From Mugil cephalus (Eukaryota > Chordata > Actinopteri > Mugiliformes > Mugilidae): DNA of 64,000 nucleotides. The notes under the pieces were generated by a model that saw only the letters and a program-made list of their open reading frames with translations, searched no databases and was not told the DNA's origin. The DNA lies in the NCBI RefSeq assembly GCF_022458985.1, contig NC_061789.1, positions 10,102,857 to 10,166,856 on the forward strand. Reading direction: 5' to 3'. Below, one piece after another: positions 19,445-19,705 of this stretch. Within the stretch, counting starts at the first letter, position 1, and each line of letters starts with the position of its first letter. The translations under genes and the position numbers were made by a program.

Positions 19445-19705
19445 ATGAGCCGAGTGATGTCCCTGTCCTGTCCCGGCATCGAACTGCCCGGCCCTCGGCG
19501 CCTGTCTGACGGCCCGAGCCGACGAGAGGGCTCGCCAGTCTGACACCGCGCCAGCTTGGATAAGGAGTTCAACCTATACCTGACACTACAGCGCCGCCTG
19601 GAGATCGTCGGTAGAGTCTACCTGACCGCCGGGCAGGTGACAATCCGGTTCCAAAAGCCGAGGATAAAGACGAAGAAAACAGCTGCGCAACCGGAGAGAG
19701 AGAGA
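19445..19705 (+). pseudogene. hoxb10a (pseudogene): hoxb10a pseudogene, homeobox exon remnant
   Basis: Read in one frame from 19445, this stretch aligns through a Hox10 homeodomain. From 19568 it reads KEF, NLYLTLQRRLEI and later QVTIRFQKPRIK, against Hox10 [17 protein letters not shown] and [12 protein letters not shown]. By my alignment about 24 of 41 positions from KEF to the final KK are identical. The LEI after RR is specific to group 10, not group 9. After the homeodomain the DNA still resembles the Hox10 SRENRIRE tail with a 1-base shift near 19687. It cannot make a working protein: a stop TGA at 19541-19543 lies in the amino-terminal arm, codons are missing before and after KEF, the invariant W48 is R and the DNA-contacting N51 is K. 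The exon starts at a good acceptor (TTTTCCAG at 19437-19444). Its position upstream of mir-196 and hoxb9a is where hoxb10a sits in zebrafish. Comparison sequences are from memory. Confidence 0.85.

What the first reader, a model, noticed from the sequence alone, without database searches (positions are those of the whole stretch)
19445..19705. Fossil hoxb10a homeobox exon in its ancestral position
A frame carrying KEF..NLYLTLQRRLEI and QVTIRFQKPRIK aligns along a Hox10 homeodomain, with a stop in the amino-terminal arm, small deletions, W48 to R and N51 to K. It lies upstream of mir-196 and hoxb9a, where zebrafish keeps hoxb10a. Many other teleosts are described as lacking hoxb10a, so a readable remnant would date and document the loss. 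The DNA alignment seems to extend past the homeodomain into the Hox10 SRENR tail with a 1-base shift.
Basis: partly seen in the sequence, partly recalled or inferred. Interest (0 to 1): 0.85.

Follow-up and report, generated by a model that had tools for sequence, protein, structure and literature searches.

The report
Dead hoxb10a exon in fish cluster
This fish carries the decayed, no longer working homeobox exon of a lost body-plan gene, hoxb10a, still at the gene's old place; Hox gene loss in fishes is well known, but a readable remnant of this one could help date when it was lost.

Summary
Confirmed in substance. Window 19553-19678 is a broken posterior-Hox homeobox: frameshift-aware score 117 against the fish's own hoxa10a, at most 38 in 60 shuffles. 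Hox10 fits best as ancestor (lnL 11 better than hoxb9a, 7.5 better than the nearest Hox9, hoxd9b), though hoxd9b ties it on the core protein score. It lies in cluster orientation, about 28 kb after hoxb13a and 7 kb before mir-196, in the hoxb10a slot. W48R, N51K, a 6-base loss in helix 1 and a frameshift or stop in the arm rule out a working homeodomain. The claimed SRENR tail is not above chance, the WLTAKS leader is marginal and no exon 1 was found. Four intact Hox10 genes remain elsewhere. The Hox set is percomorph-like; PMC5168715 infers hoxb10a loss before that radiation. Simulated decay gives roughly 0.13-0.40 substitutions per site since loss, about 30-95 My at a cyprinid silent rate: younger than an ancestral percomorph loss unless decay was slower here. 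No other fish could be compared, so one loss or several stays open.

The parts
19506..19552 (+). Possible remnant of the pre-homeodomain leader and arm (LTAKSGRKKR.. region), in a frame other than that of the helices; 12-base loss and 2-base shift before helix 1
   Evidence: Frameshift-aware alignment; on its own marginal, 15 of 200 shuffles as good
19553..19678 (+). Decayed Hox10-type homeobox, helices 1-3, with 6-base loss in helix 1, W48R, N51K, R52P
19541..19543 (+). TGA stop in the frame of the helices
19679..19706 (+). Proposed Hox10 tail after a 1-base shift; not above chance
   Evidence: draws it; shuffles do not support it
19443..19444 (+). AG after a pyrimidine tract, candidate old splice acceptor; spacing unlike the intact Hox10 paralogues
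26455..26531 (+). mir-196 precursor (positional anchor)
   Evidence: 69.1 bits
37250..37870 (+). hoxb9a exon 1 (end approximate, judged by eye; positional anchor)
   Evidence: Hox9_act E 9e-52
47573..47773 (+). hoxb9a exon 2 homeobox (positional anchor and class control)

Best explanation
It is the unitary pseudogene remnant of exon 2 of hoxb10a, decaying in place. Shown: a Hox10-like homeobox with disabling changes in the hoxb10a slot, and four intact Hox10 homeoboxes elsewhere in the genome. Inferred: once the role of hoxb10a was covered by the other Hox10 genes, purifying selection lapsed, substitutions and small indels accumulated, exon 1 decayed beyond recognition, and the homeobox stays readable only because it began as the most conserved part. 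No product and no present function is expected.
For: Score 117 against the fish's hoxa10a; 60 shuffles reach 38 at most. lnL -112.8 with hoxa10b as ancestor against -120.3 for hoxd9b and -123.9 for hoxb9a. In decay simulated at d = 0.25 (300 copies per gene, counted if the best group mean is 30 bits or more) the observed Hox10 margin was reached by 0 of 208 hoxb9a relics and by 0-0.5% of relics of the other five Hox9 genes (198-230 counted each), but by 21-37% of relics of the four Hox10 genes (225-259 counted each). Synteny: hoxb13a homeobox at about C20:10094105, relic at about C20:10122362, then mir-196 and hoxb9a, all plus strand. The Hox10 query lists the relic once among 99 genome matches. 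In zebrafish hoxb10a follows hoxb9a (PMC2654907, passage).
Against: hoxd9b, a Hox9 with RRLEVAG, ties hoxa10a and hoxa10b in the core score (102 each), outscores hoxd10a and hoxc10a over the whole stretch (111 against 108 and 107) and comes within 0.4 bits of hoxa10a in tblastn. Simulated Hox9 relics are often taken for Hox10 if the margin is ignored: 27 of 208 for hoxb9a, 60 of 202 for hoxd9b. In plain DNA alignment hoxb8a outranks hoxa10b. Of 8 core positions that separate Hox10 from Hox9 as I set them, 3 carry the Hox10 state, 0 the Hox9 state, 5 neither. No exon 1; leader marginal and tail not significant. No hoxb10a of another fish could be aligned.
Confidence: 0.9

Rival explanations
1. 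It is a decayed tandem copy of hoxb9a rather than the old hoxb10a.
For: Nearest intact neighbour; alignable to hoxb9a (tblastn 38.1 bits).
Against: 11 lnL units worse than Hox10; 0 of 208 counted simulated hoxb9a relics show the observed Hox10 margin; L, I and V in RRLEI..V are Hox10 states.
Confidence: 0.04
2. The coding gene is dead but the exon is kept as a regulatory element, which would slow its decay.
For: It looks better kept than a loss before the percomorph radiation predicts at 4.13e-9 per site per year: at d = 0.5 only 0.3% of 600 simulated copies score as well (rate from PMC3091775, a carp-zebrafish estimate, passages).
Against: The rate of this lineage is unknown and may be lower; the relic was found because it is readable, which selects slow decay; conservation could not be measured without other fish.
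Confidence: 0.1
3. It is a retrocopy or transposed piece of another Hox10 gene.
For: No exon 1 beside it; acceptor spacing differs.
Against: It sits in the hoxb10a slot and orientation; a retrocopy would carry exon 1 joined on, and no exon 1 similarity is found.
Confidence: 0.02
4. Chance resemblance in GC-rich DNA.
For: GC 0.59 against 0.43 for the window.
Against: 117 against 38 at most in 60 shuffles of the same letters.
Confidence: 0.001

Closest known systems
hoxb10a of zebrafish (intact gene)
   Same: Hox10 by name, next after hoxb9a in the cluster (PMC2654907, passage); intact in zebrafish (PMC6173838, passages)
   Different: Here only a broken exon 2 is found; sequences could not be compared
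hoxa7a remnant of Gulf pipefish (PMC5168715, section 9 read)
   Same: Broken Hox gene remnant in its old cluster place in a percomorph
   Different: There exon 1 remains and the homeobox is gone; here the reverse
hoxb7a pseudogene of Astatotilapia burtoni (PMC2080641, passages and section 6 read)
   Same: Hox loss in the HoxBa cluster by a disabled frame
   Different: Recent, described by a stop codon near the start; here old and heavily decayed
hoxd9b of this fish (L012)
   Same: RRLE and G residues in helix 2 give a tied core score
   Different: Hox9 in HoxDb with an open frame; 7.5 lnL units worse as ancestor

Membership tests
Hox10 homeobox genes | Homeodomain closer to group 10 than to the other Hox groups compared (5-9, 11, 13) | tested here: met
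   Searches (13 ancestors, groups 8-11 and 13; 21 homeoboxes of this genome), with the hoxd9b near tie told above; group 12 only by a recalled HOXC12 (76 against 101-112 for recalled Hox10)
Hox10 homeobox genes | WLTAKS leader before the homeodomain | tested here: inconclusive
   15 of 200 shuffles as good
Hox10 homeobox genes | (S/N)RENRIREL tail | tested here: not met
   25-90 of 200 shuffles as good for the four Hox10 tails; a decayed gene may have lost it
Functional homeodomain proteins | Open frame with W48 and N51 | tested here: not met
   W48R, N51K, frameshift or stop; that both residues are near invariant is recalled
hoxb10a orthologue | Place between hoxb13a and mir-196/hoxb9a, same strand | tested here: met
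hoxb10a orthologue | Alignment to hoxb10a of another fish | not testable with these tools
Unitary pseudogene | No intact copy of the same gene elsewhere in the genome | tested here: met
   Four full-length Hox10 homeoboxes found, on C11, C14, C12, C1, none on C20; the next matches are Hox9
Two-exon Hox gene | Exon 1 upstream | tested here: not met
   Best E 0.063 in window 1-26000, while 9 of 9 cross-paralogue exon 1 pairs tested match at 7e-8 or better

The most novel reading that the evidence does not exclude
hoxb10a stayed functional in this lineage well after the percomorph radiation began, so its absence from percomorphs is the sum of several separate losses rather than one ancestral loss.
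Probability: 0.25. Interest if true: 0.5.

Novelty: new member of a known kind. Interest (0 to 1): 0.35.

Why it matters
Presence or absence tables cannot tell one shared loss from several. A readable relic with defined lesions can: shared lesions across species would fix a single event, differing lesions would show separate ones. Searches for hoxb10a with pseudogene, hoxb10 with hox cluster and pseudogene, hoxb10a alone (5 papers), and B10a with hox cluster gave papers whose passages on this gene speak of its presence, absence, order or expression and of no hoxb10a remnant. Subscription journals, figures and supplements were not searched.

Tried and rejected
Exon 1: a frame MSPQCQLP.. starting near 16506 and a SPAINTFL match at 19307-19339 were looked at and left as chance (the second E 0.76, 1.4; the first gave no exon 1 match worth keeping). 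The 10 kb fetched upstream of the window (L031) was not searched for exon 1, and 857 bases between it and the window were not fetched.

Cod-type origin: held unlikely, as MHC II beta is present (5 matches, 5 over the cut-off); loss in cods is recalled. Tandem repeats in the window showed no extreme either, judged by eye.

dN/dS: not run, since ancestral third positions are unknown and the paralogues are distant; a decay distance was estimated instead.

Plain DNA alignment (300 shuffles, 97 at most) ranked hoxa10a 169.5, hoxd10a 166, hoxc10a 163, but hoxb8a (162.5) came above hoxa10b (158.5), and hoxb7a (146) and hoxb6a (142.5) above all six Hox9 genes. hoxb8a has a long repetitive tail in that comparison, which may be the cause; this was not tested. 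I relied on the protein and codon scores. A DNA search of the own genome with the relic itself did not complete, so DNA copies elsewhere were not looked for; the Hox10 protein search is the only genome-wide check.

Full report
What is there. tblastn of recalled human homeodomains finds it with HOXA10 at 58% identity over 43 residues, E 3.9e-9, HOXD10 1.0e-8, HOXC10 1.9e-8, HOXA9 1.7e-7, HOXB13 2.9e-5, HOXA13 9.3e-5. Pfam's Homeodomain model matches at E 0.0039, below its cut-off, and phmmer against PDB finds Antennapedia-type homeodomains first, at 2e-5; PDB offers no Hox10 chain among the 32 sequences that a Hox10 query matches at 1e-15. A frameshift-aware alignment of 19445-19760 scores 117 against the fish's own hoxa10a, against a mean of 28 and a maximum of 38 in 60 shuffles.

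Which class. Against 21 homeoboxes of the same genome the order is hoxa10a 117, hoxa10b 115, hoxd9b 111, hoxd10a 108, hoxc10a 107, then 96 or less. hoxd9b is the one gene outside group 10 that competes; in the core alone it ties at 102. Under a neutral-decay likelihood on 42 codons and 13 possible ancestors, the Hox10 genes give lnL -112.8 (a10b), -113.5 (d10a), -115.3 (a10a), -118.0 (c10a); then hoxd9b -120.3, hoxb9a -123.9, others lower. Of 8 core positions that separate Hox10 from Hox9 as I set them, 3 carry the Hox10 state, none the Hox9 state, 5 neither. In simulations at d = 0.25, 300 copies per gene, the observed Hox10 margin was met in none of 208 counted hoxb9a relics, at most 0.5% for the other five Hox9 genes, 3.4% of 59 counted hoxb13a relics, and 21-37% for the four Hox10 genes; without the margin, 27 of 208 hoxb9a and 60 of 202 hoxd9b relics would be called Hox10. 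Plain DNA alignment is less clean: hoxb8a outranks hoxa10b there.

Where. The window is C20:10102857-10166856 of a 634.8 Mb, 24-contig genome. The hoxb13a homeobox lies at about C20:10094105, upstream of the window. Then come the relic, mir-196 at 26455-26531, hoxb9a and hoxb8a (exon 1; L013, exon 2), all on the plus strand. In zebrafish hoxb10a follows hoxb9a (PMC2654907, passage); that mir-196 sits between the group 9 and group 10 genes is recalled. Intact Hox10 homeoboxes lie on C11, C14, C12 and C1; the names a10b, a10a, d10a, c10a are my assignment from their neighbours.

How it is broken. W48R, N51K and R52P in helix 3, a 6-base loss in helix 1, and in the arm a 12-base loss with a 2-base shift, or, read in the helix frame, TGA at 19541-19543. 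That W48 and N51 are near invariant in homeodomains is recalled. The leader is marginal (15 of 200 shuffles) and the SRENR tail is not supported (41, 82, 90 and 25 of 200 shuffles for the four Hox10 tails). Exon 1 was not found in window 1-26000 (best E 0.063), though 9 of 9 cross-paralogue exon 1 pairs match at 7e-8 or better. The AG at 19443-19444 is about 55 bases from the leader, against 26-29 in the four intact genes.

What fish. The Hox set is percomorph-like: HoxDb present (d11b with an extra intron inside the homeobox, d9b, d4b), no eighth cluster seen, and no match in the place of hoxd13a or hoxb8b. Of the 99 matches, the 30 loci it returned and 8 further homeoboxes were read; two single homeoboxes (C15:1521260, C6:10123359) and the most 5' genes of several clusters were not, so these absences rest partly on order. 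PMC5168715 (section 9 read) infers that hoxb10a, hoxb8b, hoxd13a and the hoxcb cluster were absent in the percomorph ancestor; PMC7057633 (passages) says HoxB10a and HoxD13a are absent from Tetraodon, fugu and medaka; PMC2080641 (passages) mentions the extra hoxd11b intron in Tetraodon. Loss is not confined to percomorphs: striped catfish (PMC6173838, passages) and the butterfly fish (PMC4166920, passages) lack it, while lungfish keep hoxb10 and tetrapods lost it (PMC7875771, passages). MHC II beta is present, so it is unlikely to be a cod. The species is not known to me.

When. The ML decay distance is 0.215 (0.125-0.350) on 33 conserved core codons and 0.295 (0.200-0.430) on 48 with the arm, both against recalled human Hox10 residues, and 0.25-0.28 with the fish's own Hox10 genes on 42 codons. 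Simulated decay with the same search (600 copies per distance) puts the observed score near the middle at d = 0.25; it is reached by 2.7% at d = 0.4 and 0.3% at d = 0.5, while 7.5% fall as low at d = 0.15 and 0.8% at d = 0.1. Interpolated, that is roughly 0.13-0.40. At 4.13e-9 per silent site per year (carp-zebrafish; PMC3091775, passages) this is about 30-95 My. The percomorph crown is about 120 My old (recalled), which would give about 0.5. This hints at a later loss, slow local decay or some constraint, but the rate is borrowed, the simulation assumes one indel rate, and a relic noticed by eye is likely to be a well-kept one. I do not treat it as shown.

Verdict. A unitary pseudogene remnant of hoxb10a exon 2. 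It is a known kind of event, not found described for this gene in the papers searched, of modest interest; it becomes useful once the same interval is compared across fishes.

Noticed in passing
L004 (G000:C1:15979955-15980134, minus): The fish's hoxc10a has a divergent Hox10 signature: WLKAKS instead of WLTAKS and a tail NRESREREQG instead of NRENRIREL.
   Followed up: no
L034 (G000:C13:22114000-22117500): The hoxd11b homeobox is split by an extra intron; a passage of PMC2080641 mentions an additional intron in this gene of Tetraodon.
   Followed up: partly
29926-29998: A tRNA-Arg (TCG) gene on the minus strand inside the Hox cluster, between mir-196 and hoxb9a.
   Followed up: no
25186-25268: About 14 copies of a telomere-like hexamer TAGGGC upstream of mir-196.
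   Followed up: no
G000:C13:4016466, C19:18450293, C5:24731115, C8:207617, C6:13073214: Five other homeobox-like matches with one stop inside, possibly relics or intron-split genes elsewhere in the genome.
   Followed up: no
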